A stretch of 64,000 nucleotides of DNA from Argopecten irradians (lineage: Eukaryota > Mollusca > Bivalvia > Pectinida > Pectinidae): the NCBI RefSeq assembly GCF_041381155.1, contig NC_091144.1:36523262-36587261 (forward strand), read 5' to 3'. Each line of letters opens with the position of its first letter. The first letter of the stretch is position 1. Shown here one piece after another: positions 31,906 to 61,495 of this stretch. The notes under the pieces are model-generated. The model was not told where the DNA came from. It worked only from the letters and a program-made list of their open reading frames with translations, and made no database searches. The position numbers and the translations under genes were made by a program.

Positions 31906-34900
31906 ATGGCGTGCAATAAGAAGTATAAGGATTTGGTATGTAAACAATTTCAATATTTAATATCACTTTATTTGAACAGGTGAAAATTAAAGATGCTCAG
32001 CCCCTGATAAATAGTATTTTTCTTCAATAAAAAGCAAGAGCATAGGAAATAGTATTTTTCTTCAGTTACAAAGTTACTTACTTTACACCATTACCACCAG
32101 TGAAAAGTTTAAGCTTCCAATTTTACTTCAAGATAAAAATATCAAAAATAATTAATTGCACCCTGAAAAAAATTCCGTGGCAAGTATGGAATGAAGTACT
32201 GATTGCATATGCATCAAAAGCAAAACAAAATTATTTAAATTTTATTTGTTTGTTAATTACATATATATATATACATGATTAAACACCTACTGTTGTTTAA
32301 ATGATGAGTATCATTTATGCTCTGTCGGCGGTGGAGCATCTTTAAAGTAGCTTAAATTTTTAAAGTACCAAGTTTGTTAAATGAATGACCTTGACCTTCA
32401 TTCAAGGTTCCAGGGATCAAAAAGACTAAAATCTTTTAAACAACTTGTTGTTAATAACTAAGAGGCCTAGAGATCTAATATATTTGGCGTGTAGCGTGTT
32501 TGCATAAAAGGTTACCAAGTTTATTCAAATGAATGACTTTGACCTTCACTCAAGGTCACAAGGGGAGATATGGGCTGAAATCTTTCAAAAATTAATGTCT
32601 TTTCAATAACTAAGAGGCCTAGAGACCTGATATTTGGCTGTAGCATGCTTGGGTCATTGGCTACCAAGTTCGTTCAATTGAATGTCCTTGACCTACTTTT
32701 AAGGTCACACTTGTTAAATAAATCATAAACTTACAACTCCTACTGATGAGTTAAATTGTCAGCTTATTTAATTCGTTTGTGTGAATATAAAGATTTTTGG
32801 CTATAATACTGTATACTTTAAATGTGTTGTACATGTATTGATGACCATTAAGGCCCTTGAGCCTCTTTTTGATTGAATTAAACAGTGGGGTTTGACTAAT
32901 TCAATTTTACATCTATGTGCCTCTTCGCTTCTAGTTTTCTGTACAGGAAACTAGTCTACATTTAAATTCAGAGTAATCTGGATTTTTCAGTTGCTCAATT
33001 GAATTCCTTTTGCAAAATCAGCCAGAAAAAATGCGGTGACTAATACATTGTAATTCAAAACATTTTTATTTGGCATTCAGAACTTTACTTTATTTCCAAA
33101 ACATTTTTGACACATCACACATCATAGATCAGTTCCTGGAGTTGCCATTTTAAACTCCTGATGGACATTTTAATCCTGCAAAAAACACATCCAAGTTCTA
33201 TTTCACAAGGAAAATCCTGAGTTGTAAATAATAGTCATTATCGTGTTGATCAGCCCGACTTGAATAACAACACTGCTATTTTCCCAAGATAAAAGAAAAT
33301 GAAAGTATTTACTTCATGTGTCACGTAGCTTCCATAATTTCTACCCACAATGCAATGCCATGCTGGTTTGTACTTTTTATCAAATTCTAGTTTCACAAAT
33401 GCTGCAATGTCTTTCTCTACAGAGTACATACCAACTCCTTCGACAGCACAGTCCACAGCAAACTCCTGCATTTCACGATCTATCATGTCCGAACATCTGA
33501 CCTTGGCCTTTTTTATCGTTATGGAATCAAGGTCAACAGCTTCTGCCATTTTTAGTCTGTTGTGACTTCAGGTTAATTTGAATTTACGAAAAAAAATTCA
33601 CTATGTATTGTGTTGCTTAATTATCCTGAAATTAAGAGAGAAAAATGTTCAAATTAGTATGGATTTGAATAGAACACGTTTCTTTTTTCAATCTTTATTC
33701 ATCCCTGAAATATTAAAATGAACTGTTCCAGCTTTAGTTTTTTGAAATTTCAAATGAGTCTATAGGAGGTTTATTTGGTCAAATATATATTTACAGACAA
33801 AGACTGCTCATTAAATTCATAGTGTATTACCTTCTTTTTTATCAGAATGACTTCCCTTTATTTTTGTCGTAATTACTTCCCTTTATTTTATCAGAATAAC
33901 ATCCATTTATTTCATCAGAGTTACTTCCCTTTATTATATCAGAGTTAATACCCTTCATTTTATCAGAATTTTATTTGATTAGAATTAATCCCCTTGATTT
34001 TATCAGAATTACTTCCCTTTATTTTATCAGAATTAGATCCCTTTATTTAATTTTTGTCCTATCAACAGCAGGACCATTTAAGTACATGCCAGGTTTGTTT
34101 TCTTTGAATTGTTGGAAAGCTGGAGTACCCAGAGAAATACCACTGCACCAACAGTTAGTCTGTGGCAACTGCCCCACATGGGATTTCAACTTGCAACCCA
34201 GAGTTGAGAGGTGGAAGGCTTTTGGAAATATCGGTACACCTTAACCACTTGGCCACCATGTATAAAACTTATATACAAACATTTTGTAAAAAGTTGTATG
34301 ATTGTGGTATGCAAATTAAAACAATTTGGGAATAAGATAAAGCCTACCTTGGTATTCACATCTGTACAACAACCAACTGTTTATATGTCTTCTTTAATAT
34401 TTGTGTTTGAAGACCAATTTTTCTTTGCTCACTGTGCAGTGGCTGTGGTAACCAAGTGGATAAAATGTCGCAATATGTTACAACAGTGACCTTTGGGTCG
34501 TGGGTTTGAATCTCATGTCAGGGCTTTTTTTCAACATGATTTGGGGCCGAAAAATCGGCCCCATTCCCCATGGCAAAACCTCTAAATTTTTCTTAATTCA
34601 AGCCTTAATTAAATTTCCCAAAATAAAAATTTCTTGAAAACTATCCAAAAATATTATATGAACTTAGTTGGTTAAGACTTTAAATATTTGTGAATTGGCT
34701 TCAGAAAAGTATATAAACTGCATTGGAAATCAAAAAATCTTATTCGTTATGCTTTATTTCATATTTCATAATTTTTCCCAAATTCTGGTTTTGTCTCACA
34801 TTTTCCCAAATTCAAAGCCATTGGCCCCATTCCCAAAGCAATGAGAAAAAGCCCTGCACGTAGGACAGTTGACAGGTACTGACTGCAGGTCAATGGTTTT

Positions 34901-46900: not shown

Positions 46901-49900
46901 CTCACTTGTGTCCAACTATATATTTGATTAACTTTGAGGGGAAATCTAGGCCTCTTGTTTTGGAGTATTCTCTGAAACTTGATAGAGTTAAGACTTTAAA
47001 CTGAGTGACTGATATTTCAGAGATACCTGTTCATTCGAGGACTGCTTCATCACGAGGCCAAACAAAGAAGAGTCCACTACCTCAAGTCTGCGGCTGAGTG
47101 TACATCGCGAGCAATTGTATCCTTGGAACTGTGCGAACATCCAATCAAGTCTGTCCACCAAGCCGAACAAACTACAAGGGGTAAGTACTGTCCCGACAAA
47201 GCGTTGTTATTTTTCGGGTTGATCCGTCATCTTGAAAACACATTTTGAACTTCTTCTCAAGTTCTACCGGTGCGATTTGGCTGAAACTTACCTGAAATGA
47301 TCCTGAGATGGTCCTGACAAAGTGTTGTTATTTTTTCGGGTTGATCCGAAATCCAAGATGGCCGCCACAGCCGCCATCTTGAAAACACATTTTGAACTTC
47401 TTCTCAAGTTTGCATGAAATGATCCTGACATCGTCCCGACAAAAGTAATGTTATTTTGGGTCGATCCGAAATCCAAGATGGCCGCCACAGCCGCCATCTT
47501 GAAAACACATTTTGAACTTCTTCTCAAGTCCTACCAGTGCGATTTGACTGAAACTTGCATGAAATGATCCTGACATAGTCCCGACAAAGTGTTGTTATTT
47601 TTCGGGTCGAACCGAAATCCAAGATGGCCGCCACAGCCGCCATCTTGAAAACACATTTTGAACTTCTTCTCAAGTTCTACTGGTGCAATTTGGCTGAAAC
47701 TTGCATGAAATGATCCTGACATGGTCCGACAAAGTGTTGTTATTTTTTGGGTCGATCTGAAATCCAAGATGGCAGCCACAGCCGCCATCTTGAAAACACA
47801 TTTTGAACTTCTTCTCAAGTTCTAACGGTACGATTTGGCTGAAACTTGCATGAAAAGATCTTGACATGGTCCCGACAAAGTGTTGTTATTTTTCGGGTCA
47901 ATCCGCAATCCAAGATGGCCGTCTCAGCTGCCATCTTGAAAACACATTTTGAACTTCTTCTCAAGTTCTACTGAAGGGATTTGGCTGAAACTTGCATGAA
48001 ATGATCCTGACATGGTCCCGACAAAGTGTTGTTATTTTTCGGGTCGATCTGAAATCCAAGATGGCCGCCACAGCCGCCATCTTGAAAACACATTTTGAAC
48101 TTCTTCTCAAGTTCTAACCGGTGCGATTTGGCTGAAACTTGCATGAAATGATCCTGACATCGTCCCGACAAAGTGATGTTATTTTTTCGGGTCGATCCGA
48201 AATCCAAGATGGCCGCCACAGCCGCCATCTTGAAAACACATTTTGAACTTCTTCTCAAGTCCTACCAGTGCGATTTGACTGAAACTTGCATGAAATGATC
48301 CTGACATGGTCCCGACAAAGTGTTGTTATTTTTCGGGTCGAACCGAAATCCAAGATGGCCGCCACAGCCGCCATCTTGAAAACACTTTTTGAACTTCTTC
48401 TCCAAGTTCTACCGGTGCAATTGGCTGAAACTTGCATGAAATGATCCTGACATGGTCCCGACAAAGTGTTGTTATTTTTCGGGTCGATCTGAAATCCAAG
48501 ATGGCAGCCACAGCCGCCATCTTGAAAACACATTTTGAACTTCTTCTCAAGTTCTAACGGTACGATTTGGCTGAAACTTGCATGAAAAGATCTTGACATG
48601 GTCCCGACAAAGTGTTTGTTTATTTTTCGGGTCAATCCGCAATCCAAGATGGCCGTCTCAGCTGCCATCTTGAAAACACATTTTGAACTTCTTCTCAAGT
48701 TCTACCGAAGGGATTTGGCTGAAACTTGCATGAAATGATCCTGACATGGTCCCGACAAAGTGTTGTTATTTTTCGGGTCGATCTGAAATCCAAGATGGCA
48801 GCCACAGTCTCCATCTTGAAAACACATTTTGAACTTCTTCTTTGAAGTTCTACCGGTGTAATTTGGCTGAAAACTTTCATGAAATGATCCTGACATGGTC
48901 CCAACAAAGTGTTGTTATTTTTCGAGTTGATCCAAAATCCAAGATGGCCGCCACAGCCGCCATCTTGAAAACTCATTTTGAACTTTTCAATTTCTACCAG
49001 TGTGATTTGGCTGAAACTTGCATGAAATGATCCTGACATGGTCCCGACAAAAGTGTTGTTATTTTTCGGGTCAATCCGAAATCCAAGATGGCGGTCACAG
49101 CCGCCATCTTGAAAACACATTTTGAACTTCTCCTCAAGTTCTACCGGTGCGATTTGGCTGAAACTTGCATGAAATGATCCTGACATGGTCCCGACAAAGT
49201 ATTGTTACATCTCTGGTTGATCCCAAAATCGAAGATGTACTACCATGACACTATATATCTAATTAATTTCCCTATATTTAAAGGCCCTTGGGCCTCATTG
49301 TTTGGAAATAAAATTTGTTAAAAGAAATTGAAAATGATCCTGACATGATCCTGTACAAAGTGACCACCATATATTATTTAATTTTACTATTGTCAGGGTA
49401 GTCAGATGACCGTTAAGGTCCTTTGGGCTCTTGTTAATTGTTGCTGATTAAATTTTGCTACATTCATTGTCAAGTTAATTTCTGTGAACTTTTAAAATAC
49501 CCGCATACACAATGGAAAGATTGACAAGAATGTTATCTTTTATAGCACATTACTGTTAAAAAAATTGACAGTGTGTGAAAATTTGTCTCCGAAGAGAAAA
49601 TCGCGAAAATTTCTCCTCCCAAAAAATCAAACAACTAATACAGTATTTTACATGATGTGATAATTGCTCACTGTTATCTGTACATTAGAATTTTATGTTT
49701 GTACATTTTATTGTATTTGATTAATAGATTAAACAAATAATGATTATCATAAATAGATCGGTGGGGAGACCAAAAAGCGACTCCAGACCTATAATGCTGA
49801 AGGCCAGTTTGATGATAGTCCACCTAAAGTGGGCAAGTTTGTCAGCTCTGCTGGAGCTATACTGCTAGCTTTACTGGAATCCACAGAGAAAGCCTTGGCA

Positions 49901-52900
49901 GAGAACCACAGGTCAGTTACACACATAGGGATCTGACCAGATTCTGAGAGATTCTGGTTTACAGAGAGATCTGATCAGTGAGAGATTCTTGTTTACAGAG
50001 AGATCTGATCAGTGAGAGATTCTGATTTACAGAGATGTGATCAGTTATAGATTCTGGTTTACAGAGAGATATGATCAGTGAGAGATTCTGGTGATCACTG
50101 AGAGAAGCTGGTATTACAGAGAGATCTGATCAGTGAGAGATACTAGTACTGGTTTACACAGAGATGTGATCAGTGAGAGATACTAGTTTACAGAGAGATA
50201 TGATCAGTGAGAGATTCAAGTTTACTGAGTCTGATCACTGAGAGAATCTGGTATTACAGAGAGATCTGATTAGTGACAGATACTAGTACTGGTTTACAGA
50301 GAGATGTGATCAGTGAGAGATTCTGTTTTACTGAGAGATCTGATTTGCGAGAGATTTCAGAGATCTGATTTGCGAGAGATTTCATAGAGATCTGATCAGG
50401 GAGAGATTCTTGTGTACAAGAGAGATTCTGGTCAGAAATACGTTAGTAACAGTGCAATTCTCTTTACTGGTTATTCTGTTTTGCATATCACAGAGTTACC
50501 TCCCTTGCAGTTATATATCCAATGTGACATCATTATTTTTGGGAGTGGAACTCTCATCATTTTGTTTGGAAAGTACAGTACATTATAATCAATTGCTACC
50601 GACAAGGCCAGGTAATTCTGTAATATACAAACACAACATACCTTTTAAAGAACTTATGATATATATACCTCATTAATTTTGTTTAAAATTACTTATTTGT
50701 ATATTCCGAATACCTTGGTTAAGTATTTTGTGTTGATGTGAGATCTGCTGAAGGCTTTATGATTTATCTTGGTTTATAACATTGTATACGATTTAACTTT
50801 GTATGTTACCAGGGAAGATGAAGTGGTGCTGGTCCAGGAGTCTGAGGTCAAAGGCCGTGCCTGTCAATTATCTGAAGAACCATTCCTAAAAGATCATGAT
50901 GATGGTAAGTGGAGGAGTCTCATTTCTGTACAAGCCCTTTGTACTTCTTGTTCTGTGACATGTCTGTACTTTAGGGATGTGGGGTTTGTGATGTGTACAG
51001 GCCTTTTGTACCCCTTGTTCTGTGACATGTCTGTACTTTCGGGATTTTTGGTTTGTGATGTGTACAGGCCTTTTGTGCCCCTTGTTCTGTAACAGGTCTA
51101 GATCTGTTCTTTAGGGATGTGTGGTTTGTGATGTGTACAGGCCCTTTGTACCCCTTGTTCTGTGACATGTCTGTACTTTCGGGATTTTTGGTTTGTGATG
51201 TGTACAGGCCTTTTGTGCCCCTTGTTCTGTAACAGGTCTAGATCTGTACTTTAGGGATGTGTGGTTTGTGATGTGTACAGGCCCTTTGTACCCCTTGCTC
51301 TGTGACAGGTCTGTATTTCACAGGGATGGGTGGTTTGTGATGTGTACAGGCCCTTTGTACCCCTTGTTCTGTGACAGACATGTACTTTCGAGATGTGTGG
51401 TTTGTGATGTGTACAGGCCCTTTGTACCCCTTGTTCTGAGACAGGTCTGTACTTTAGGGATGGATTGTTTGTGATTATGTACAGGCCCTCTGTACCTTTT
51501 GTTCTGTGACAGGTCTGTACTTTAGGGATGGATTGTTTGTGATATGTACAGGCCCTCTGTACCTTTTTTAGGTCATCTGACCCGAAGGGTCAGGATGACC
51601 TATAGTCGTCATGTTTCGTCCGTCGTCGTCCGCCGTCGCCGCCGTCCGCCGTCCGCCGTGCGTTAACATTTCACATTTTGAAAACTTCTTCTCAAGTTTC
51701 TACCGGTGCGATTTAGCTGAAAACTTGCATGAAATGATCGTGACATGGTCCCGACAAAGTGTTGTTATTTTTTCGGGTCGATCTGAAATCACAGATGGCC
51801 GCCACAGCCGCCATCTTGAAAACACATTTTGAACTGTCTTCTCAAGTTCTACCGGTGCGATTTGGCTGAAACTTGCATGTGAAATGATCCTGACATGGTC
51901 CCGACAAAGTGTTGTTATTTTTCGGGTCGATCTGAAATCCAAGATGGCCGCCACAGCCGCCATCTTGAAAACACATTTTGAACTTCTTCTCAAGTTCTAC
52001 CAGTGCAATTTGGCTGAAACTTGCATTGAAATGATCCTGACATGGTCCCGACAAAGTGTTGTTATTTTTCGGGTCGATCTGAAATCCAAGATGGCCGCCA
52101 CAGCCGCCATCTTGAAAACACATTTTGAACTTCTTCTCAAGTTCTACCGGTGCAATTTGGCTGAAACTTGCATGAAATGATCCTGACATGGTCCCGACAA
52201 AGTGTTGTTATTTTTCGGGTCGATCTGAAATCCAAGATGGCCGCCACAGCTGCCATCTTGAAAACACATTTTGAACTTCTTCTCAAGTTCTATTAGAGCG
52301 ATTTGGCTGAAACTTGCATGAAATGATCCTGACAATGGTCCCGACAAAGTGTTGTTATTTTTCGGGTCTATCCAAAATCCAAGATGGCCGCCACAGCTTC
52401 CATCTTGAAAACACATTTTGAACTTCTTCTCAAGTTCTACCGGTGCGATTTGGCTGAAACTTGCATGAAATGATCCTGACATGGTCCTGACAAAGTGTTG
52501 TTTTTCGGGTTGATCTGAAATCCAAGATGGCCGCCAAAGCCGCCATCTTGAAAACACATTTTCAACTTCTTCTCAAGTTCTACCAGTGCGATTTGGCTGA
52601 AACTTGCATGAAATGATCCTGACATGGTCCTGACAAAGTGACCCATATGTAATTAATTTTACTATTGCCAAGGTAGTCAGATGACCGTTGTGGCCCTTTG
52701 GGCCTCTTGTTCTGTGACAGGTCTGTGCGCTGCCTGGTGGAGAATGGAGGTACTAATTAAAAGAGACTTGGTGAAGAGGAGGATATTGAACAAACAGCCT
52801 GTGTACCAGCTGCTTCCCCTGGGTATGGAGGCTGCCCGCCTCCTAAAAACACATTTCACCTACCCTGTAGGCACGGGTAAGATCCTCTTTAGTTCAACAC

Positions 52901-55900
52901 TTATTTGTAATTTAATCTCAGTAGTGTGAAGCCTTGTGTTAAATCTCTGTGGACCGGCACCAAATTTCTATAAAAAAAAACTAATAACACTGATTTAAGT
53001 CAACACTTCAGAAACTTTGTTAATACAATGTCTAGTACAGGAAATATTTAAAAAAAAAAAAAAAAAAAAAAATTCTTCAGAGAAGATGCCATTTCAACCA
53101 ACTTCCGATACTCAATACTTGTCTAACAGTCGCTTCAGACATGATTTTAAAAACTAAGGCAGTTGGTGTCAAATTTTTCCAAACATGTCCATCAGACTGG
53201 CACATTTCACGATGTCTGGTTTTATTTTTCAAAATGAAAATTTATACCAACTAATTTTTCACTAATTTAAAATATAAAAAAAAAATCTAACTAAAAATTA
53301 TACAAACATATAGTCATGAGAGGAAAACACATTTATTTAGTAGTCAAAATAAATTTAAAAACTATTATATTGAAAATTGTGTCGTTGTTTTCTAGTTTCA
53401 AATGTTTCCTTTATTTTGTAATTTCACCAGTTTTACTGTTGTTTTTTTGAAAACCCTCGTTATTACACAATATATCATGTTTAGACCAATAAGATGTCTG
53501 AGATATGGAATGAAGCGTTCTGGATACTAAGATTTAAGTGGTATTGCCTAAACCATGTGACTTGATGCTACCTGATGAACAATCCTTCGTTGAGAACTAT
53601 CAGTCTTCTGGAGTTTTAAGAGTCGGCAGTGATATATTAATTAAGGATTACCAATAGAAAATGTGTCTGTTGTTATCTGTTTTGACGATTTAAAAAAATA
53701 TATGTCTCTGCTTCCGTTATTTGAAAGTGGATTGTTTTAGATTAGTTTTGATTTATGTGGGTGTTTTTCTCGACAAAAGGATTTTTTCCACTTACAAAAG
53801 ATAAATTTAATCGCCTTATTCCTAAAGGTTACAATATAACAGCCTCTGATATGATTGTGTTATTTTAGAGAACCAATAAAAAGAATTGAGAAAACTTAAC
53901 ATATAAACATAGTTCTGATAGTCACCTCTTATTTCACAATATTCAACGGCGTCTAGCGTGCCGAAATGTTTAGGGTATGATTAACATTGAGTCTTTCAAA
54001 TTCCTCCATCGTTCAAAGGTCAAGGAAACACCTTCACTTCCTTCCTGAGGAGATCGGGCATGTACCAAAGATAGATATTCACTTGGGCTTATCCAGAAAC
54101 ATAATTGTTGCGACCTAGATGAATTCTTAGGTCTACGGCTTTTCCTGCAATACATTTCTCTAAGGCGTTGTCAATGTCTTTACAATACCAAACTTTTGTC
54201 CATTGTTGTGGACTGAGAGTAACACCCTTCTTTGTTGGATATAATGTTCCTCTTTCACTCGTGTCATAAAGTCTTGACATGAATAAGGGACTTGTTTGCC
54301 GTTACAAAACAATCGTTTCCTATGTCCAGTCTACAGTAATCGCCATTGGTTCGTCTCTGCACAAGATCTGTTTTCTCTTGTTCAAAGGCTATGACAGGGT
54401 CCAGTTTGTCAATTGCCAAACCAGTACCTTCGACGGTATCTCCATATTTTGTTTATATGCTGTCTTACTGTGTCAATATATGTGTTTCCATGTCTCTTGT
54501 CAACGATAAATACAAGAGAATAATGAACACTTTCATATGAAGATGGACTCTTTATACAGACACTGTGATGATGAAATACGATGTACACGTTACCACTAAA
54601 ATTATAGGGGCAGTTCTATCCCTACACATGGGGTACTCTCCTACTGGCTCAAAACTTATAGGGGCAGCTCTGATCCTACCCCTATCTACTGATTCTAAAA
54701 TTAAAGGGACAGTTCTGACCCTACTCATAATAGGGGCAGTTCTGACCCAACACTTAACTGGCTCTAAAATTATAGGGTCAGACTATCCCTACTGACTCTA
54801 AAATTATAGGGCCAGTTCTGACCCCACTCATACATATATGCTGTTATTATGGCCAGATTGAAGATAGCAAGTAAGTTAATTTTTCAGAAAATATATAACA
54901 CCTATGGGCATGCTACCCAAAGATGCTCCAACGCTGGCGGATGGTAATTTTCACTATCAAAAAGAAGAGCACACAAATTGGCATTTTTCTTCAGTTACAA
55001 AAATTATTTACGTTACACCATTAGTTTTATTTTATAAGTTTGAGATACTTATTTTACTCCAAGATAAAAATATTAAAAATAATTAACTGCATTCTGAAAA
55101 AATGTACGACACTAAGTCCTATTATGGATTGACATACTAATTGTGCATTCACCAAGAGCGAAATATTTTATTTCATACCGTATTCGACCAAATAAGCGCC
55201 CAGGGTGTTTTAAAATTTTAAAAAATCATAATTAAAAGATGCTGATAAGAAAAAATCATTGCAAATCTATACAGTTTTGTGTAGTTTGGGTCTTTATTTA
55301 TGCTTTGGCAATTGAAATTGAGGCCTCAAAGGGGCGCTTATAGAGATATGGGCGCTTATTGAGTCGAATACGGTACATATTTTTGTGCTTATTAGACACA
55401 TATACACAGGATTAAACATCCATTATTCTTCAAATAAAGGGTATTGTTTATGCTCTATCGGCGATGGAGCAACTTTAATGATATATATTATGATGAATCT
55501 ATTTTGACAGACCCAAATCAGAAAACTGTTAAACGTGAAGAAGGACAAGAAAACTTCCTGTATACGAACGACAGCGGCCATGATGGGTAAATTGTTTTAT
55601 CATTAAATCATTGTCAGTTAGAACTGAAATTTTTAAAACAATGCTTGGTTGTTCCAGAATACATTGGAAAAATTATCACATGTATTTGACACTTTAAATA
55701 CTGTAAATCTGATTTAAATTTAAGCGAGAGAAATTTACAGTAATTAAAGAAGGTTGCTTGGTGTGAAAATTCCAGAGGGTAATATTTTGTACATGTATAA
55801 ACTTGGTTGGATATAATTCAGAAAGTGTATCTATTGCGAAAATAACATCACCACAAGTTTTTATGGATGTCAGTTTGCCAACTTTGTCATTGTATCACAA

Positions 55901-58900
55901 AATAAGTACATGTATACAGTACTTTGATTACAACTTTGATTGCAGGGTAATATTACAGGTTGACCACAGAGAACTTGGTGGAGATCGCCTCAGTCTAAGT
56001 CAGGTAAGTCATAAATACCTGTAATTCTATCTGACTTACAGAACTTGATGGGGAGCGCCTCGGTCTGAGTCAGGTAAGTCATAAATACCTGTAATTCTGT
56101 CTGACCCAGAGAACATGGTGGAGATCGCCTCAGTCTAAGTCAGGTAAGTCATAAATACCTGTAATTCTATCTGACTTACAGAACTTGATGGGGAGCGCCT
56201 CGGTCTGAGTCAGGTAAGTCATAAATACCTGTAATTCTGTCTGACCCAGAGAACATGGTGGAGATCACCTCGGTCTGAGTCAGGTAAGTCATAAATACCT
56301 GTAATTCTGTCTGACTTACAGAACTTGATGGGGAGCGCCTCGGTCTGGGTCAGGTAGGTCATAAATACCTGTAATTCTATCTGACTCAAGGAACTTGGTT
56401 GGGAATACCTCGGTCTGAGTCAGGTAAGTCATAAATACCTGTAATTTTATCTGACCCAGAGAACATGATGGAGATCGCCTCGGTCTGAGTCAGGTAAGTC
56501 ATAAATACCTGTAATTCTGTCTGACTTACAGAACTTGATGGGGATCGCCTAGGTCTAAGTCAGGTAAGTCATAAATACCTGTAATTCGGTCTTACCCAGA
56601 GAACATGGTGGAGATCGCCTCGGTCTAAGTCAGGTAAGTCATAAATACCTGTAATTCTATCTGACCCAGAGAACTTGGTGGTGATCGCCTAGGTCTAAGT
56701 CAGGTAAGTCATAAATACCTGTAATTTTATCTGACCCAGAGAACATGATGGAGATCGCCTCGGTCTGAGTCAGGTAAGTCATAAATACCTGTAATTCTGT
56801 CTGACTTACAGAACTTGATGGGGAGCGCCTCGGTCTGAGTCAGGTAGGTCATAAATACCTGTAATTCTATCTGACTCATGGAACTTGGTTGGGAATACCT
56901 CGGTCTGAGTCAGGTAAGTCATAAATACCTGTAATTCGGTCTCAGTCAGGTAAGTCTTAAAAACCTGTAATTCTGTCTGACCCAGGGAACTTGGTGGGGA
57001 ATACCTCGGTCTGAGACAGGTAGGTCATAAATACCTGTAATTCTGTCTGACCCAGGGAACTTGGTGGGGAATACCTCGGTCTGAGACAGGTAGGTCATAA
57101 ATACCTGTAATTCTGTCTGACCCAGGGAACTTGGTGGGGAGCGCCTCGGTCTGAGTCAGGAAAGTCATAAATGCCTGTAAATCTGTCAGACTCATTTCCA
57201 TTAGAACTAATAGCTGGCTGGTTCCATTGGTTTGTTGGTTTCTACTGAATGCACTGTCAACAACAAATTTCTGAAATTGAATTAATTACATATACAGGCT
57301 AATCTCTCTTTGAAGATTCAAGGGACAAAGAAAAAATGGTGTTTACTCATTCAACCCTCACAATTCATAATGGACTGGTCTAGTCTTTGATTAAGAGGAA
57401 CCTAAATGTGTCTTTAGGGGTGCATGAGTTAATTATCAGATTGAGTTTATATTGACAGGGAAGGATCTTTCTAAATGAAATCATTTGGGGAACTAAATGA
57501 AATCATTTGGGGAATATGCAATTACCCCATGTATTAAATTGAAACTGAAGACGAATAAAGGATCCCTTTTTTCATTTGACTGATTGCATCAATATCCCAA
57601 ATCCTGGTGTCCATATTGAATGTCTTGGAGGGGAGACAACTCTCAAAGATTCAATTTTACTTTACAGTTGTGTGACTTGCTGTCGGTGGAAGGGTTGACG
57701 TACAGAACACAACAGCTAAAAATTGGAGACTATCAGTGGGTGTGGCGATGTGACGGACAAGAGCATATCCTTCCATGTGTGGTCGAGCGTAAACGTGTAG
57801 GTAAGTGTAAGACTTGTTAACTACTGTACATTGTACCCATTAAATTACTGTTAAGGTTTAAGACCCGGTTTAAACTAGTGTTTTTTTGGATCACCTGACC
57901 TCAAGGAGCTTATGTCATGGCGCGGTGTCCATCATCCGTCTGTCAACATTTCCTTTAAAACGCTACTAGTCATAGAGTTCTGCATGGATTGTAACCAAAT
58001 TTGACCAGAAACATCCTCAGGGGAATGGAAACAGAGTTTGTATAAATTTTGGCTCTGACCCCATGGAGCAGAAAGAGTAGGGCCCAACAGTGAAAATAGA
58101 GGTATATCTTTAAAAAAAAATTGGGGATTATATTTATCCTGTTACCTTAGCTTCTCTACTTAGCAACCAATATTGTTCCAAAAGCATAAAAATAGCTACT
58201 ACAGAGGGAAAAATATGTAAATATAAGGATTGAAAAGTATTTTTATGGTGTTTACAGTGGTATGAATGCAATTGGATACAATGGGGTTAGCGCTACATGT
58301 ATAATATGACTGTATTCAACCACATGCATACCACCGTAAACAAAACAAAACACTTTGCAATCTTATGTAACCATGAATATTTTGTAAGCATGATCATTTC
58401 AAAAAATATTTTAATGTATCACTTCAGATGACATGGCGAGAACTCTGAAAGAGGGGCGGTTCTGGACTCAGGTAACCAAGATGAAGGGGTTTAAGTCGGA
58501 GTTTGAGGAGAAGGGCGTGGCTTGTGTTGTACACTACCTCGTGGAAGGGAACCCCGAAAATTATGTGGTCAGGTGTGGTGACGGCTGTCAGGGAATTGGT
58601 CGATGTGGATATCCCTCCTTACAACAAGTCAAGGTGCTTACTGTAATGTTCTTTGTGATCGCTGGAAGAAAAGTCAAATATTTCCGACGATTTTGTGAAA
58701 TAAATTCCAGATAGTCTGCACCTTAGAAATTTATGTGAAGAGTGTACTAATAATGGCATGTCAGTGTGTTATAATGATTTCATTTGAAAATTAACCACAC
58801 AGGTATATTTTGTAAAGTTATTATTAATTTGGACGTAGGCTTCAAATGCAAGAAATCAGCTCACTTATAAATATTTGGCCACTAGCTATACCTTTGCTGT

Positions 58901-61495
58901 TTTCTGTATATTTGAAAGAGCTTACTACATTAAGCTCATATATTTTTCAAATTTTATAATAGTTTCCACAGATAGCTTGCAATGGCTGATTACAGGCGTT
59001 ATGCATCTTCTGATATAACAAATGTATTATGCAATATGCAGGAAATTACAGTACGCAATCTGACGATGTTTGATTTGATAAAAGAAAAAGCACTGAAGCA
59101 TTTCACATCATGCTTCAATGACATTACTGTAGAATTTTCTAACAAAATTATCAACTAAACCAAAATTAGAATCATCAATGTTTATCAAATATTCAATATT
59201 TACAACTAAAATTTAGACAGGATATCATCCTATATATAATTACGTATTGTGTTTTGTGATGTTTCTGTCAGTGTGCATTCCGAGACCTGGCAGGAGATAA
59301 AGATTTGGTTACCCAGGCAACCGATGACCTTCAGGATACAGTGGCTGTCATTGCATCTTTAACCTCTGACCTTCAGCAGAGGTAAGTGACCTTCACCTTT
59401 ACCAGGTTTGTTATTGAGGGAAAGCCTTGGGATACCTGGAGAAAGACAATTGAACAGCGGTCAGTACCTGGCGACTGCCCCCACACAAATCAGATGTGGA
59501 GGGCTTGTGGTAATGTCAGGAAATCTTAACCACTTGCCCACCGCAGTCTCCCTCACACTCCACAAAAAAATGAATTAGACGAAAAATGTTCAGAATTTCT
59601 TGTATTCTTTGCTTTTCACTCAAGTTCTGTATTGATTCAATTTTACAATTATATGTTTTAGAACAAGAAAAGGAGATTTTGATCAGCTTGTTGCCATGGA
59701 ACTTGAACAACCCTCCGAGTCTAGGACAAAAGCTACAACAACTCCAAAAGATGTAGGACCCAAAGGTTCAAAGGTCACCATGAAAGCAGATACCGTGTGT
59801 GTAGATAGTGACAGTAAGGACTCACTTGACGCTGGATTACGTCATCAAAGGTCATTGGGGTCAAAGGTTAAACAGACAGAAAGGTCACCAAAGGATAATT
59901 CCAGAGAGTGTTCGTTGTTGTCTAAAGTGGGATACCCTAAGGAAAATACACCGCCACAAAGTTGCAAGATTTCTGGTACTCGATGGACACAAAAATGTGA
60001 GGTCAATTATGATGGTGATCATGATGTTGATCTTGACACTTATCGAAGTATAGGTATAAATTCACCTGAGAAACCCAAGTGTCCACAAATTTCAAATAAC
60101 ACATATTCTAGTCGAGTATTTCAGAAAAAATCAGTTTCTAATTTAAACATGTCTGGTTCCAGTAAGAAGACTTTCTCACATGAAAAGCAGGTAATACTTG
60201 GAAGGAGTCCACCTGAATTGACACGGAGACGAGAGTTACCTCCCCTAGAGCCCCTGGTACAGTATCATTGTGCGGGTTCCTATTCTGGCCCCTCCCCTTC
60301 TAAGAGGTCTCGTGAGACCTCAGTGACTGCCTACAAACCTAAGATGACTAGTTATTCTAACAGCGACGTTGGTTACAGGTCATTTATACATGATGAGACC
60401 GATTCATATGAGGAGGAGATAACTCCGTCTTATAGACCGAAAGTTTCCTCGGATCGAAATTCAAGGGATGATTATCAGTCAAAGAACACAGCCAAGAGAG
60501 ATTTCTCAACTGCAGGGAAATATCGGCCTAAAGTGTCCGTTGATCAAAGACAAAGTGATGAGTTCAGATCAAGTACGACATTTCACTCACCTGAACATGA
60601 TAGACTTAAAACCAACACTTACCGACCAAAAGTCGTGTCTCCTAGTAATGAAAAGGGTGTGTACAAATCAAATGTGTCAAGTTTTTCATATGGAAGTGAA
60701 TTTGACGACTATTCCCATTCAGAGAAAGCCTATCGACCTCAATTGTCAACCACACAGGATAATAGGCAAATGCATGAGCCAAAATCTCCTGATCAACACG
60801 TAGAAGATTTGTTTAACCAAAATAGCTGCAGAATTGATTCCCATGATATCACAAAGACTAGTGCTAGAGGTTCCGGCGTTTACAAATCACCTGTTAATGA
60901 TTTTGGAAAAAGAAAAATGATAAATCTAAATATGTCTAAGCAGACCAAATATGTTGGTCAGCAAATTACAGGAAAAAGTTCTGGAAAGATTAAATCTACA
61001 TGTAAGGGGACAAAAGTTTCTGAAAGTGATGATTGGATGAGAGGGGACAGTTTTAATAGGACAAGTGATGTGAATGCCGCTGTGGGACGCAAATCTCTTC
61101 TAAGGGAGACAACTCTAATGGAGGCCGGTTCGGATAGTGATAGTTTACCCTGTGTTGGATTGGACGATTACAACTCAGATGACCTCCCAGATCCAACATG
61201 GCCGCCACCCTCAAGTAAAGGTCAGAGGTTACAACCCGTACATGGTTCGCAGAAGTTATCGTCAGATGATCTGCAAACAAAATGTAGATTTGAAAGCTCG
61301 GATCATTACGGTAGGGTTTCAAAAGAAACACAGGGGCATCTACAAGGAAAATCTAGTCAGTATGAAGATGAAATCTGTTTAGTTAAATCCGTGCTGCCCC
61401 ATGTATCACGGACAGAAATTCTGTCTGCATTGAGATATCACAGTGGAAATGTGGACTTATGTGTTACAAGTTTGCTGGAGAACGATTCTCAGTGA
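31906..61495 (+). CDS. MUS81: MUS81-family structure-specific endonuclease with C-terminal CUE-like domain
   Basis: Predicted nuclear nuclease cutting branched DNA, normally with an EME partner. Coding exons: 31906-31935, 47021-47180, 49757-49911, 50813-50904, 52721-52876, 55511-55586, 55946-56003, 57668-57800, 58428-58633, 59272-59381 and 59662-61495. About 1002 residues against about 550 in human MUS81. Order: N-terminal HhH (about 11-90, [26 protein letters not shown]), winged helix (about 145-200, [19 protein letters not shown]), ERCC4 nuclease (about 223-391). Metal-site residues are present: VDHRE, then GDYQWVW and [19 protein letters not shown], fitting GDXnERKX3D. The usual C-terminal (HhH)2 is not seen; a disordered tail (about 392-955) ends in a CUE/UBA-like fold (about 960-1000, [19 protein letters not shown]). 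All junction phases agree except exon 2 to 3, where one extra base at the AAA of 47169-47171 breaks the frame of the expected [15 protein letters not shown]. The first exon is the least certain. Confidence 0.8.
31987..32345 (+). mobile_element. M1 MITE, complete copy
   Basis: TTAAAGATGCTCAGCCCCTG at the left, TGTCGGCGGTGGAGCATCTTTAA at the right (shown in parts: TGTCGGCGGTGGAGC and ATCTTTAA). The left inverted repeat is eroded. It starts 51 bp after the donor of the first coding exon of the MUS81-family gene. Confidence 0.8.
32346..32868 (+). mobile_element. Helitron-like element fragment, 3' end
   Basis: Two to three diverged units of about 150 bp, each with a 'gaatgaccttgaccttcat'-like stretch and TAACTAAGAGGCCTAGAGA, end in GACCATTAAGGCCCTTGAGC and CTCTTTTTG. 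It is the same family as 14838-15830 in opposite orientation. Confidence 0.55.
33250..33549 (-). CDS. LC8-type dynein light chain, divergent paralogue
   Basis: Single uninterrupted frame of 99 residues. LC8 is a small dimeric hub protein bound to dynein intermediate chain and many other partners through a groove that accepts short TQT-like motifs. The core is clear: [20 protein letters not shown], then [16 protein letters not shown] and [15 protein letters not shown] at the C terminus. Human DYNLL1 has 89 residues; the extra 10 are an N-terminal extension ([10 protein letters not shown]). Changes from the usual sequence (KPAW for [14 protein letters not shown] for THETKHFIYF) fall in and near the groove and may alter partner choice. 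Possible poly(A) signals (AATAAA on the - strand) are at 33065-33070 and 33089-33094. It lies inside the first coding intron of the MUS81-family gene on the opposite strand. Lack of introns could mean retrocopy origin, but no poly(A) tract or target duplication was seen. Confidence 0.9.
33838..34040. repeat. Short minisatellite, about 25 bp unit
   Basis: About eight units of TTATTTTATCAGAATTACTTCCC type, variable in length. Confidence 0.75.
34047..34257 (-). repeat. tRNA-derived SINE, family S1
   Basis: On the - strand: GTGGCCAAGTGGTTAAGGTG (box A), a box-B region CTGGGTTGCAAGTTGAAATC, GTACTCCAGCTTTCCAAC, and a TGTTGATAGGACAAAAATTA tail. Confidence 0.75.
34432..34985 (+). repeat. S1 SINE split by a hAT-like MITE
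   Basis: The head (34432-34518: GGTAACCAAGTGGATAAAAT, then GGGTCGTGGGTTTGAATCTC) and the body/tail (34857-34985: GACAGTTGACAGGTACTGAC, TGGTTTTTCTACAGGTATCC, CAGTTCATAGGATGTTAAAC) are colinear with intact S1 copies but separated by 338 bp of foreign sequence. Confidence 0.75.
34519..34856. mobile_element. hAT-like MITE inserted in a SINE
   Basis: Termini CAGGGCTTTTTTTCA and GAGAAAAAGCCCTG are inverted repeats of the CAGGG type common to hAT elements. Subterminal GGGGCCGAAAAATCGGCCCC and TTGGCCCCATTCCC recur at both ends. No transposase. Target duplication is short and imperfect (CATGT/CACGT). Confidence 0.7.
35000..36320. other. Intronic stretch with no recognised feature
   Basis: AT-rich sequence between the split SINE and the pyrimidine-rich tract. 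I saw no coding exon, repeat family member or RNA gene in it. Confidence 0.5.
36337..37790. repeat. Pyrimidine-rich minisatellite, about 1.4 kb
   Basis: Begins with an inverted pair (GTGACCTCTAATGACC at 36337 and GGTCATTAGAGGTCAC at 36422), then dozens of roughly 20-25 bp units of the form CCCCTTACCTCTGAAGCTCC. The + strand is almost free of G apart from the GAAG step. Open frames across it are low-complexity artefacts. Confidence 0.85.
38400..38540. repeat. Cluster of TTCATGAA palindromes
   Basis: Within about 140 bp TTCATGAA or TCATGAA occurs at least seven times, in text such as GTTCATGAATGATTCATGAA. No regular period is evident. Confidence 0.6.
38596..38929 (+). mobile_element. M1 MITE, complete copy
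   Basis: TTAAGATGCTCCACCGCTGA at the left and CGGCGGTGGAGCATCTTTAA at the right, with all M1 landmarks between them. Confidence 0.85.
39028..39114 (+). mobile_element. M2 palindromic MITE
   Basis: TTAACACATTCACCCCTGAA at the left and TTTCAGGGGTGAATGAGTTA at the right, with the centre ATAGACTAGACCAGTCCATT. Confidence 0.85.
39501..39902. mobile_element. TTAA-flanked MITE, GGCCCACTACC family
   Basis: The left end TTAAAGGCCCACTACCTTTC and the right end GAAAGGTAGTGGGCCTTTAA are exact inverted copies. About 400 bp, non-coding. Confidence 0.85.
40083..40172 (-). mobile_element. M2 palindromic MITE, reverse orientation
   Basis: TTAACTCATTCATCCCTGAA at the left and TTCAGGGGTGAATGAGTTAA at the right. 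The centre (GGACTGGTCTAGTCTTTGA) is inverted relative to 39028-39114. Confidence 0.85.
40270..40760. repeat. Minisatellite, about 53 bp unit
   Basis: About eight irregular units of GTCTTGAAGTTACAGTTGATGT plus TGAATTATTGAATTGAAGTA-like sequence (given in two parts). It lies downstream, in - orientation, of the 41194-41505 dynein light chain and may reach its 3' UTR. Confidence 0.75.
41194..41505 (-). CDS. DYNLL: LC8-type dynein light chain
   Basis: Single uninterrupted frame of 103 residues. Role as in the LC8 family: dimeric light chain of cytoplasmic dynein and general dimerisation hub. The core is very close to DYNLL1/2: [20 protein letters not shown], then [40 protein letters not shown] and [19 protein letters not shown] 14-residue N-terminal extension ([14 protein letters not shown]) precedes the usual start. 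An internal ATG near the canonical start is not present in the right place, so the upstream ATG at 41505 is chosen. The residues that bind partner strands ([17 protein letters not shown]) are all kept, in contrast to the paralogue at 33250-33549. It is also nested in the MUS81-family first intron, on the opposite strand. Confidence 0.93.
42581..42741. mobile_element. MITE with ACAGTCAAACCTG termini
   Basis: The left end ACAGTCAAACCTGCCTGAGC pairs with the right end AGACAGGTTGAAATGT. Internal TATAAAGACCACCTGGCTAT is repeated and inverted as GGTGGTCTTTATAGAC. Confidence 0.65.
42812..43183 (+). mobile_element. M1 MITE, complete copy
   Basis: TTAAAGATGCTCCACCGCTG at the left and GTCAGCGGTGGAGCATCTTT at the right. 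Its right TTAA is shared with the element that begins at 43180. Confidence 0.85.
43180..43754. mobile_element. TTAA-flanked MITE, GGGACAATT family
   Basis: The left end TTAAAGGGACAATTAATTC and the right end GAATTGTCCCTTTAA are inverted copies. About 575 bp, non-coding. It separates the M1 copy at 42812 from a left-truncated M1 copy at 43755. Confidence 0.75.
43755..44078 (+). mobile_element. M1 MITE, left-truncated
   Basis: Begins inside the element (AGTATTTTTCTCTAGTTACA) and runs through CCATTACCACCATTGG and TTAATTGCATCCCG to a degenerate right end GACAGTGGAGCACATTAA. Confidence 0.7.
44400..44575 (+). repeat. tRNA-derived SINE, family S1
   Basis: GAGTTTGAATCCCATGGTAG (box B), GGTGGTTTTTCTCCAGGTAC, TCCGGCTTTTCTCCACCAAC, and a GTTGTTAAACTAATTATCCC tail. 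The head (CTAGTCAGTTAAACACAAG) is degenerate. Confidence 0.75.
45528..45750 (+). repeat. Tandem duplication, about 120 bp
   Basis: TTTCACGATTGATTTTCTTA...CCACCTCCCCTCTAACAAAA...TATAGTCTGATCGGCC (45534-45612) is repeated at 45650-45727 with few changes. Confidence 0.75.
46320..46865. repeat. (ATCTC)n-type microsatellite
   Basis: About 540 bp of CATCTCATTTCATCTCATCT-like text on the + strand with higher-order variants (CCCATCTCATT). The long open frames across it are simple-repeat artefacts. Its 3' end is about 155 bp upstream of coding exon 2 of the MUS81-family gene. Confidence 0.9.
47187..49435 (+). mobile_element. Helitron-like element(s) with about 147 bp tandem core
   Basis: Thirteen to fourteen tandem units; each has GTGCGATTTGGCTGAAACTT, GATCCTGACATGGTCCCGAC, TTTTTCGGGTCGATC and CAAGATGGCCGCCACAGCCG|CCATCTTG. 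The array begins 6 bp after the donor of exon 2 (GTAAGT at 47181). Two family-type 3' ends follow: AAAGGCCCTTGGGCCTC near 49280 and GTCAGATGACCGTTAAGGTC...CTCTTGTT at 49435. The 5' palindrome seen in other copies is missing. The frames across the array are repeat artefacts. Confidence 0.65.
49925..50425. repeat. Minisatellite downstream of exon 3 donor, about 35 bp unit
   Basis: About 14 irregular units of ACAGAGAGATCTGATCAGTG plus AGAGATTCTGGTTT, starting within about 15 bp of the donor at 49912. Unlike three other minisatellites here it does not clearly copy the splice site itself. Confidence 0.8.
50935..51560 (+). repeat. 67 bp minisatellite copying the acceptor of MUS81-family exon 5
   Basis: Nine units with TTCTGTGACAGGTCTGT-like sequence at 50951, 51018, 51085, 51158, 51225, 51298, 51367, 51434 and 51502. 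The real boundary reads TTCTGTGACAG | GTCTGTGCGC at 52720/52721. The remainder of each unit is GTGATGTGTACAGGCCCTTT and GTACCCCTTG. A Helitron-like element (51570-52710) now separates the array from the real exon. Confidence 0.88.
51570..52710 (+). mobile_element. Helitron-like element inserted 10 bp upstream of exon 5
   Basis: The 5' end AGGTCATCTGACCCGAAGGG with palindrome, followed by TCAGGATGACCTATAGTCGT and a CCGTCGTCGTCCGCCGTC run. Six to seven core units of about 147 bp follow, nearly identical to those at 47187-49435. The 3' end is GTCAGATGACCGTTGTGGCC...CTTTGGGCCTCTTGT. It is flanked by CTTTTTT on the left and TCTGTGACAG plus exon on the right, so both ends are visible and the element looks whole as a non-autonomous copy. 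Confidence 0.75.
53960..54510 (-). pseudogene. Broken PC4 (transcriptional coactivator p15)-like gene fragment
   Basis: The - strand encodes pieces with the look of a PC4 C-terminal DNA-binding domain: [20 protein letters not shown] with [14 protein letters not shown] nearby, preceded by a [18 protein letters not shown] strand pair. A second, similar module ([15 protein letters not shown]) follows. The pieces lie in more than one frame, so it is not a working gene; at least two breaks are evident. It sits in an intron of the MUS81-family gene in antisense orientation. The source, whether a retrocopy of a host gene or cargo of a mobile or virus-like element, cannot be told. Confidence 0.55.
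54590..54830. repeat. Short minisatellite
   Basis: Six to seven irregular units of AAAATTATAGGGGCAGTTCT followed by GACCCTAC-like text. Confidence 0.7.
54917..55478 (+). mobile_element. M1 MITE containing a nested MITE
   Basis: Left end CAAAGATGCTCCAACGCTGG (TTAA eroded) and right end GGCGATGGAGCAACTTTAA, with M1 landmarks in between (TTACACCATTAGTTTTAT, TTAACTGCATTCTG). A 200 bp element at 55176-55375 interrupts it. The right end lies 32 bp before exon 6. Confidence 0.75.
55176..55375. mobile_element. TA-flanked MITE nested in M1
   Basis: TACCGTATTCGACCAAATAA at the left and TTATTGAGTCGAATACGGTA at the right are inverted. Subterminal GCGCCCA and TGGGCGC also pair. The TACCGTATT start is shared with the 1.15 kb element at 20657-21811, suggesting related families. 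Confidence 0.8.
55968..57180 (+). repeat. 70 bp minisatellite copying the donor of MUS81-family exon 7
   Basis: The real exon 7 end GAACTTGGTGGAGATCGCC...AGTCAG | GTAAGTCATAAATACC (56003/56004) is followed by 17 further copies of the same exon end plus donor. GTAAGT or GTAGGT lies at 56074, 56144, 56214 and so on every 70 bp to 56914, then 56951, 57021, 57091 and 57161. Most keep a full CAG|GTAAGT; a few read GTAGGT and the last is GAAAGT. The copied exon end encodes [11 protein letters not shown], part of the ERCC4 metal-binding segment. Confidence 0.92.
57344..57432 (-). mobile_element. M2 palindromic MITE
   Basis: TACTCATTCAACCCTCACAA at the left and TCTTTAGGGGTGCATGAGTT at the right, centre GGACTGGTCTAGTCTTTGA. 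Same orientation as 40083-40172. Confidence 0.75.
57884..58115 (+). mobile_element. Helitron-like 5' fragment
   Basis: GGATCACCTGACCTCAAGGA, GCTTATGTCATGGCGCGG and CATAGAGTTCTGCATGGATT match the 5' end and first core unit of 29357-31630. The 3' end is missing. Confidence 0.6.
59400..59550 (-). repeat. tRNA-derived SINE, family S1
   Basis: On the - strand: GCGGTGGGCAAGTGGTTAAG (box A), TTTCCTGACATTACCACAAG, CAGTCGCCAGGTACTGACCG. It lies in the last intron of the MUS81-family gene, immediately after the exon 10 donor. Confidence 0.75.

What the first reader, a model, noticed from the sequence alone, without database searches (positions are those of the whole stretch)
31906..61495. MUS81-family nuclease that has lost the C-terminal (HhH)2 and gained a CUE-like ubiquitin-binding end
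Seen: the exons encode, in order, an N-terminal HhH, a winged helix and an ERCC4 domain with an intact GD...ERKRVDD active site, but residues after the ERCC4 fold go straight into a disordered tail and end in a CUE/UBA-like module. Known: MUS81 ends in tandem HhH that bind DNA and pair with EME1/EME2. Inference: this may be a distinct MUS81 paralogue tethered to ubiquitinated chromatin or replication factors instead of a classical EME heterodimer. I know of no described animal MUS81 with this layout, but I cannot search.
Basis: partly seen in the sequence, partly recalled or inferred. Interest (0 to 1): 0.78.

Follow-up and report, generated by a model that had tools for sequence, protein, structure and literature searches.

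The report
MUS81-like nuclease with ubiquitin-binding tail
An animal genome carries, besides its ordinary MUS81 DNA-repair scissors, a second, very diverged gene for a similar nuclease that ends in a predicted ubiquitin-binding module instead of the usual DNA-binding end, which could let a ubiquitin mark say where to cut.

Summary
The core of the finding holds. On the + strand, phase-matched exons at 55946-59381 encode an ERCC4 nuclease domain (Pfam 63 bits over the whole profile) with its catalytic motifs (VDHRE, GDY, ERKRVDD). The next exon (59662-61495) joins in frame and adds a 611-residue tail that looks disordered and ends in a CUE domain (31 bits alone; modelled as three helices). A winged helix related to MUS81's precedes the nuclease (exons 49757-52876). 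No (HhH)2 was found in the window or 20 kb downstream. The same genome has a canonical MUS81 with HhH, winged helix, ERCC4 and (HhH)2, plus EME1, XPF, FANCM and FANCD2. In a small tree the new domain groups with MUS81 against XPF/Hef/FANCM but outside the three sampled MUS81s, and by eye it shares no intron with the genome's own MUS81, so it is not a recent copy.

Not confirmed: the N-terminal HhH and the 5' exons from 31906 (no Pfam hit, poor splice sites, undistinguished rank). The true 5' end is unknown, and no transcript or relative in another animal could be examined.

Best reading: a catalytically intact MUS81-like nuclease recruited by ubiquitin. Function is inferred. New variant of a known kind.

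The parts
49757..49911 (+). Exon: [13 protein letters not shown]... (possibly the end of an N-terminal HhH, unproven) and first helix of the winged helix ([22 protein letters not shown])
   Evidence: Donor CCACAG|GTCAGT score 5.2, acceptor weak (-3.4); part of the spliced winged-helix match of 14.1 bits
50813..50904 (+). Exon: second helix of the winged helix
   Evidence: Acceptor 3.1, donor 5.7 and best total score of the exon scan; phase fits both neighbours
52721..52876 (+). Exon: end of the winged helix ([13 protein letters not shown]...[15 protein letters not shown])
   Evidence: The open-frame piece 52657-52926 ranks 1 of 2435 scored with a two-sequence MUS81 winged-helix profile, 11.3 bits, next 5.0
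55511..55586 (+). Candidate linker exon (uncertain)
   Evidence: One of three candidates with the phase required between exons 52721-52876 and 55946-56003; no homology evidence
55946..56003 (+). Exon with first catalytic motif VDHRE of ERCC4
   Evidence: Acceptor 3.1, donor 8.6; continuous frame with the following exons; lies at the start of the Pfam match
57668..57800 (+). Exon with catalytic motifs GDY and ERKRV(D)
   Evidence: Pfam ERCC4 63.2 bits over the joined exons; ranks 1 with a MUS81 ERCC4 profile, 15.6 bits
58428..58633 (+). Exon: middle of ERCC4 ([12 protein letters not shown]...) with extra residues compared with MUS81
   Evidence: its donor is weak (2.0)
59272..59381 (+). Exon: last helices of ERCC4, ending in donor GCAGAG|GTAAGT
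59662..61495 (+). Terminal exon: 611-residue tail with five YRPK-type repeats, stop at 61493-61495
   Evidence: 619-codon open frame, the longest of the 25 listed; continuous with ERCC4; mean hydropathy of its first 561 residues 0.372, below the 0.422 boundary for folded proteins at that charge
61382..61483 (+). CUE domain
   Evidence: PF02845 29.8 bits in the whole-genome search, 31.1 bits; model and fold comparison
55967..57191 (+). 70-base minisatellite that copies the end of the VDHRE exon with its splice donor
   Evidence: Tandem repeats; 17 donor-like sites including the exon's own; 18 matches in the genome, all at this locus

Best explanation
This is a second, anciently diverged MUS81-like gene. 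It encodes a winged helix, an ERCC4 nuclease domain with its catalytic motifs, a long flexible tail and a terminal CUE domain (shown by sequence; the joining of the exons rests on phase and splice signals, not on transcripts). Most likely it works as a structure-specific DNA nuclease: the ERCC4 core cuts, the winged helix holds duplex DNA near the junction, and the CUE domain on its flexible leash docks on mono- or poly-ubiquitin of chromatin or repair proteins such as FANCD2 or PCNA (inferred). Ubiquitin docking would take the place of targeting by (HhH)2 and of part of the EME contact. The nuclease domain may pair with itself, as archaeal XPF and Hef nuclease domains do (inferred, from recall).
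For: ERCC4 63.2 bits with VDHRE, GDY and ERKRVDD. CUE 31.1 bits and a CUE/UBA-type model (best Foldseek match is the EDD UBA domain crystallised with ubiquitin, 33% identity, E 0.059). Winged helix, in which the Leu, Gly and Ala that PMC3834828 names as structural (L205, G209, A213; passages) are matched by eye in [11 protein letters not shown]. Tree: window with MUS81 against XPF/Hef/FANCM, support 98. Canonical MUS81, EME1, XPF, FANCM and FANCD2 are in the same genome. Precedent: SLX4, FAN1 and SNM1A link nucleases to DNA damage through ubiquitin-binding UBZ domains (PMC6213728, passages).
Against: No transcript, protein or relative in another species was seen, so expression and selection are untested. 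The tail could be a separate single-exon gene: its frame agrees with the ERCC4 exon, but that happens by chance one time in three, and the acceptor in front of it is weak (0.1). CUE domains do not always bind ubiquitin, and the MFP motif (recalled) reads VLP here. FAN1's UBZ is dispensable for its crosslink repair (PMC6213728), so a ubiquitin-binding module need not be the targeting device. The domain's percent identity does not single out MUS81 (31% to archaeal XPF). The 5' end, and therefore the start of the protein, is unknown.
Confidence: 0.55

Rival explanations
1. Two neighbouring genes were fused by eye: an ERCC4 gene that ends after its last helix, and a separate intronless gene for a CUE protein starting at MELEQPSES (near base 59696).
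For: The intron is only 280 bases; read without splicing, the ERCC4 frame meets TAA directly after GCAGAGG; the tail frame has an ATG near its start; its acceptor is weak (0.1).
Against: A strong donor (7.8) lies within a few residues of the end of the ERCC4 match, and TTTTAG precedes the tail frame in matching phase. No copy or relative of the tail elsewhere in the genome (five matches, all this locus), so no stand-alone version is known here.
Confidence: 0.12
2. A MUS81-like gene that is decaying or badly spliced: the ERCC4 part is a relic and the minisatellite with many donor copies disrupts splicing.
For: 17 near-identical donor sites in tandem, the first being the exon's own, directly after the catalytic exon; the domain is very diverged (26 to 30% identity to three MUS81s); 5' exons were not found.
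Against: The catalytic motifs are kept, frames are open over all eight located exons, and the 619-codon tail frame is intact.
Confidence: 0.13
3. A nuclease whose CUE domain is used for something other than targeting by ubiquitin on DNA, for example binding NEDD8, self-association or turnover of the enzyme.
For: CUE-related ends of the RNases N4BP1 and KHNYN bind ubiquitin-family proteins (search listing and abstract starts only; the NEDD8 detail is recalled); AUP1 and TOLLIP CUE domains, the nearest PDB sequences (E 0.25 and 0.076), work outside DNA repair (recalled).
Against: The pathway that reads ubiquitin at crosslinks is present in this genome (FANCD2), which fits but does not prove targeting.
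Confidence: 0.2

Closest known systems
MUS81 (crossover junction endonuclease, XPF/MUS81 family)
   Same: Winged helix followed by an ERCC4 nuclease with GD and ERKRxDD motifs
   Different: No (HhH)2 found; 611-residue tail with a CUE domain instead; ERCC4 only 26-30% identical to three MUS81s; extra residues in the middle of ERCC4; by eye no intron shared with the MUS81 of the same genome; N-terminal HhH not established
FAN1, SNM1A and the SLX4 scaffold (ubiquitin-guided repair nucleases)
   Same: Nuclease activity joined, directly or through the scaffold, to a ubiquitin-binding module (PMC6213728, passages)
   Different: Their modules are UBZ zinc fingers and their nuclease folds differ (VRR-NUC, MBL-type and GIY-YIG, recalled); here a CUE domain follows an ERCC4 nuclease
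N4BP1 and KHNYN (RNases with CUE-related ends)
   Same: Nuclease with a C-terminal CUE-related binder of ubiquitin-family proteins (titles and abstract starts; position recalled)
   Different: NYN RNase fold (recalled); no ERCC4 or winged helix
TOLLIP and AUP1 CUE domains
   Same: Nearest solved CUE sequences (E 0.076 and 0.25)
   Different: Not attached to a nuclease (recalled)

Membership tests
MUS81 | ERCC4 nuclease with intact catalytic motifs | tested here: met
   Pfam ERCC4 63.2 bits over the full profile; VDHRE, GDY, ERKRVDD
MUS81 | ERCC4 groups with MUS81 rather than XPF/Hef/FANCM | tested here: met
   Support 98 for window plus three MUS81s against five others, nine sequences in all; but the three MUS81s exclude the window with 95, and percent identity alone does not decide (31% to archaeal XPF)
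MUS81 | Winged helix before the nuclease | tested here: met
   Rank 1 of 2435 scored pieces, 11.3 bits; 14.1 bits against at most 7.5 in shuffles; but below Pfam detection (0 families at E <= 10)
MUS81 | N-terminal HhH (HHH_8) | tested here: inconclusive
   No Pfam hit; candidate exon ranks 7 of 2454; 5' exons not located
MUS81 | C-terminal (HhH)2 | tested here: not met
   Nothing above 4.7 bits in the window or 3.9 bits in 20 kb downstream, controls found; only ERCC4 and CUE in the joined protein; ERCC4 exon is followed in phase by the tail exon and stop. Caveat: a MUS81 ERCC4 profile finds only one of this gene's ERCC4 exons clearly, so a diverged (HhH)2 in exons elsewhere could be missed
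MUS81 | Heterodimer with EME1 or EME2 | not testable with these tools
   EME1 is in the genome; pairing needs an experiment
EME1/EME2 | Inactivated nuclease motifs | tested here: not met
   Catalytic motifs intact
XPF/Hef/FANCM | ERCC4 of XPF type | tested here: not met
   Tree; ERKRxDD is shared with the MUS81 sequences, while XPF and Hef sequences read ERKS or ERKT
CUE domain | Profile match over the curated cut-off and three-helix fold | tested here: met
CUE domain | Binds ubiquitin | not testable with these tools
   Needs a binding assay

The most novel reading that the evidence does not exclude
An ancient, so far undescribed branch of the XPF/MUS81 family in animals: a MUS81-like nuclease that does without (HhH)2 and reads ubiquitin itself, so that one polypeptide both recognises the ubiquitin mark and cuts the DNA.
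Probability: 0.35. Interest if true: 0.72.

Novelty: new variant of a known kind. Interest (0 to 1): 0.52.

Why it matters
MUS81 is normally brought to DNA junctions by partners (EME1/2, SLX4) and by (HhH)2. A relative that carries its own ubiquitin reader in place of (HhH)2 would be a natural experiment on how much of MUS81's specificity lies in its C-terminus, and would give the crosslink and fork-repair field a one-protein version of ubiquitin-guided cutting. In the held library, searches for MUS81 with 'CUE domain' (2 papers, both yeast screens that name MUS81 once) and for 'ERCC4 domain' with 'CUE domain' (0 papers) gave nothing on such a protein; most subscription journals and the sequence databases of animals were not searched.

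Tried and rejected
N-terminal HhH: tried with Pfam, a three-sequence MUS81 HhH profile on 2996 open-frame pieces of both strands, shuffles, an earlier pairwise scan and a phase-aware scan of 245 candidate exons in front of exon 49757, with 508 from the reverse complement as null (best 2.8 against 1.5 bits, no candidate convincing). Rejected as unproven. The top piece (41208-41336, 8.1 bits) lies antisense to a dynein-light-chain frame and I take it as chance.

Relatives elsewhere: none in viral contigs (13 pattern matches, 0 confirmed) or prokaryote genomes (46 pattern matches, 0 confirmed), as expected for an animal gene; NCBIfam gives only weak Hef/Xpf/Rad1 matches far below cut-off. No paralogue in the own genome by protein search (five matches, all this locus; the canonical MUS81 was not among them, so that search reaches close copies only). 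No collection of other animals was available, so conservation and selection could not be tested.

Weak points of my own work. The first Pfam scan used a draft that lacked the VDHRE exon and had two other residues at one junction; one search repeats it on the final model (63.2 instead of 70.3 bits). The CUE comparison read minus-strand hits on the wrong strand, so only L022, L024 and L027 mean anything there. Intron positions were compared by eye. The winged-helix, HhH and (HhH)2 profiles were built from one to three sequences.

Full report
Setting. The window is C11:36523262-36587261 of an unnamed 845.8-Mb genome in 1508 contigs, an animal by its gene content (inference). The finding concerns the + strand.

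Gene model. Reading the strand exon by exon gave a chain with matching phases: 55946-56003, 57668-57800, 58428-58633, 59272-59381 and 59662-61495, all with AG acceptors and GT donors, the donor of 58428-58633 (2.0) and the acceptor of the last exon (0.1) being weak. Joined, they read without a stop from [10 protein letters not shown] to the TGA at 61493-61495. Upstream, 49757-49911, 50813-50904 and 52721-52876 also chain in phase. Between 52876 and 55946 the phase requires one more exon; 55511-55586 is one of three candidates. No ATG lies in frame in exons 49757-49911 or 50813-50904, so if they are coding the gene begins further upstream.

Nuclease. The catalytic motifs VDHRE, GDY and ERKRVDD are present. 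By phmmer the only matches in the PDB below E 0.01 are four MUS81 sequences (E 0.00038-0.0006). In a nine-sequence tree the window groups with three MUS81s (own, zebrafish, human) against XPF (own, human), Hef, archaeal XPF and FANCM with support 98, while those three MUS81s form a clade without the window with support 95 (branches are long, two MUS81 rows lack about the first 20 columns, and branches inside the XPF side have support 52-56 except the XPF pair). Identity is 26% to the own MUS81, 29 and 30% to zebrafish and human MUS81, but also 31% to archaeal XPF, so identity alone does not decide.

Winged helix. A profile of two MUS81 winged helices (own and human) ranks the piece 52657-52926 first of 2435 scored pieces (2996 given) with 11.3 bits, the next being 5.0; the piece with the first helix ranks 36 with 1.5 bits. 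The three exons joined score 14.1 bits; of 2000 shuffles 1809 were scored, the best at 7.5. Pfam reports no family at E <= 10, so the domain is diverged. The Leu, Gly and Ala named as structural in human MUS81 (PMC3834828, passages) are matched by eye in [11 protein letters not shown].

(HhH)2. With human-only and human-plus-own profiles, the canonical MUS81 locus gives four pieces (32.5, 27.6, 18.2, 9.7 bits with the human-only profile), the EME1 locus one above its background (9.5, next 6.0), the window at most 4.7 and the 20 kb beyond it at most 3.9 over both profiles. The whole-genome search with Pfam EME1-MUS81_C reports two places on C5 and one, below cut-off, on C3, and none on C11. Between the last ERCC4 exon and the tail exon lie 280 bases, and the joined protein holds only ERCC4 and CUE by Pfam. 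Sensitivity is limited: a MUS81 ERCC4 profile finds only one of the window's ERCC4 exons clearly (15.6 bits; two others rank 15 and 25).

Company in the genome. Canonical MUS81 on C3, EME1 on C5 (PDB matches to EME2 and EME1 at E 4e-13 to 8e-13), XPF on C6 (E 5e-60), FANCM on C3 (E 1e-45) and FANCD2 on C12 (13 matches) are present; SLX4 only as two matches below cut-off. By my reading, none of the four introns in or at the end of the window's ERCC4 domain coincides with one of the own MUS81, which argues against a recent duplication.

How it may work. Shown by sequence: the order winged helix, ERCC4 with its catalytic motifs, long tail, CUE. Inferred: that it cuts branched DNA, that the winged helix binds duplex DNA as in human MUS81 (PMC3834828, passages), and that the CUE end brings it to ubiquitin-marked sites. 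The last step has precedents in SLX4, FAN1 and SNM1A, though FAN1's UBZ is dispensable for crosslink repair (PMC6213728, passages). In human MUS81 the N-terminal HhH carries SLX4 binding (PMC5344696, passages); whether that contact exists here is open because the HhH is unproven.

Novelty. The library holds no paper with both 'ERCC4 domain' and 'CUE domain'; MUS81 with 'CUE domain' gives two yeast screens. Searches on MUS81 with molluscs and paralogues, with ubiquitin-binding domains, with invertebrate duplications, or with bivalves showed nothing on such a protein in their listings (of these papers only PMC6213728 was opened, for passages). I could not search animal protein databases, where orthologues may already lie under automatic names. 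I rate it a new variant of a known kind.

Noticed in passing
55967-57191: A 70-base minisatellite has grown from the end of the catalytic VDHRE exon and its splice donor: 17 near-identical (C/T)AG|GTA(A/G)GT sites in tandem, counting the exon's own; 18 matches in the genome, all here. Many competing 5' splice sites could affect splicing of this gene.
   Followed up: partly
59662-61495, tail residues about 223-380: Five repeats, 30-37 residues apart, beginning [ASKT]Y[RK]P[KQ] (AYKPKM, SYRPKV, KYRPKV, TYRPKV, AYRPQL), possibly docking motifs.
   Followed up: no
   Followed up: partly
6159-6479, 9030-9350 (+) and 16552-17178 (-): Neighbouring frames: Snf7 family (42.9 bits over cut-off, and 20.5 bits below it; CHMP3-like by recall) and a SOCS-box protein with weak ankyrin matches (58.6 bits).
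   Followed up: partly
47410-49237 and 51672-52640: Two arrays of what looks by eye like the same unit of about 146 bases, 12.5 and 6.6 copies, in the span of the gene; another array of 157 bases, 13 copies, at 29486-31532.
   Followed up: no
L010 and L011 (C5:39.664-39.681 Mb): The EME1 gene of this genome carries long retroelement-like frames (gag/pol type by eye) in what looks like an intron. Only observed.
   Followed up: no
L030:1435-2853: A RING-finger frame with weak B-box matches (TRIM-like by recall) about 14 kb downstream of the gene.
   Followed up: partly
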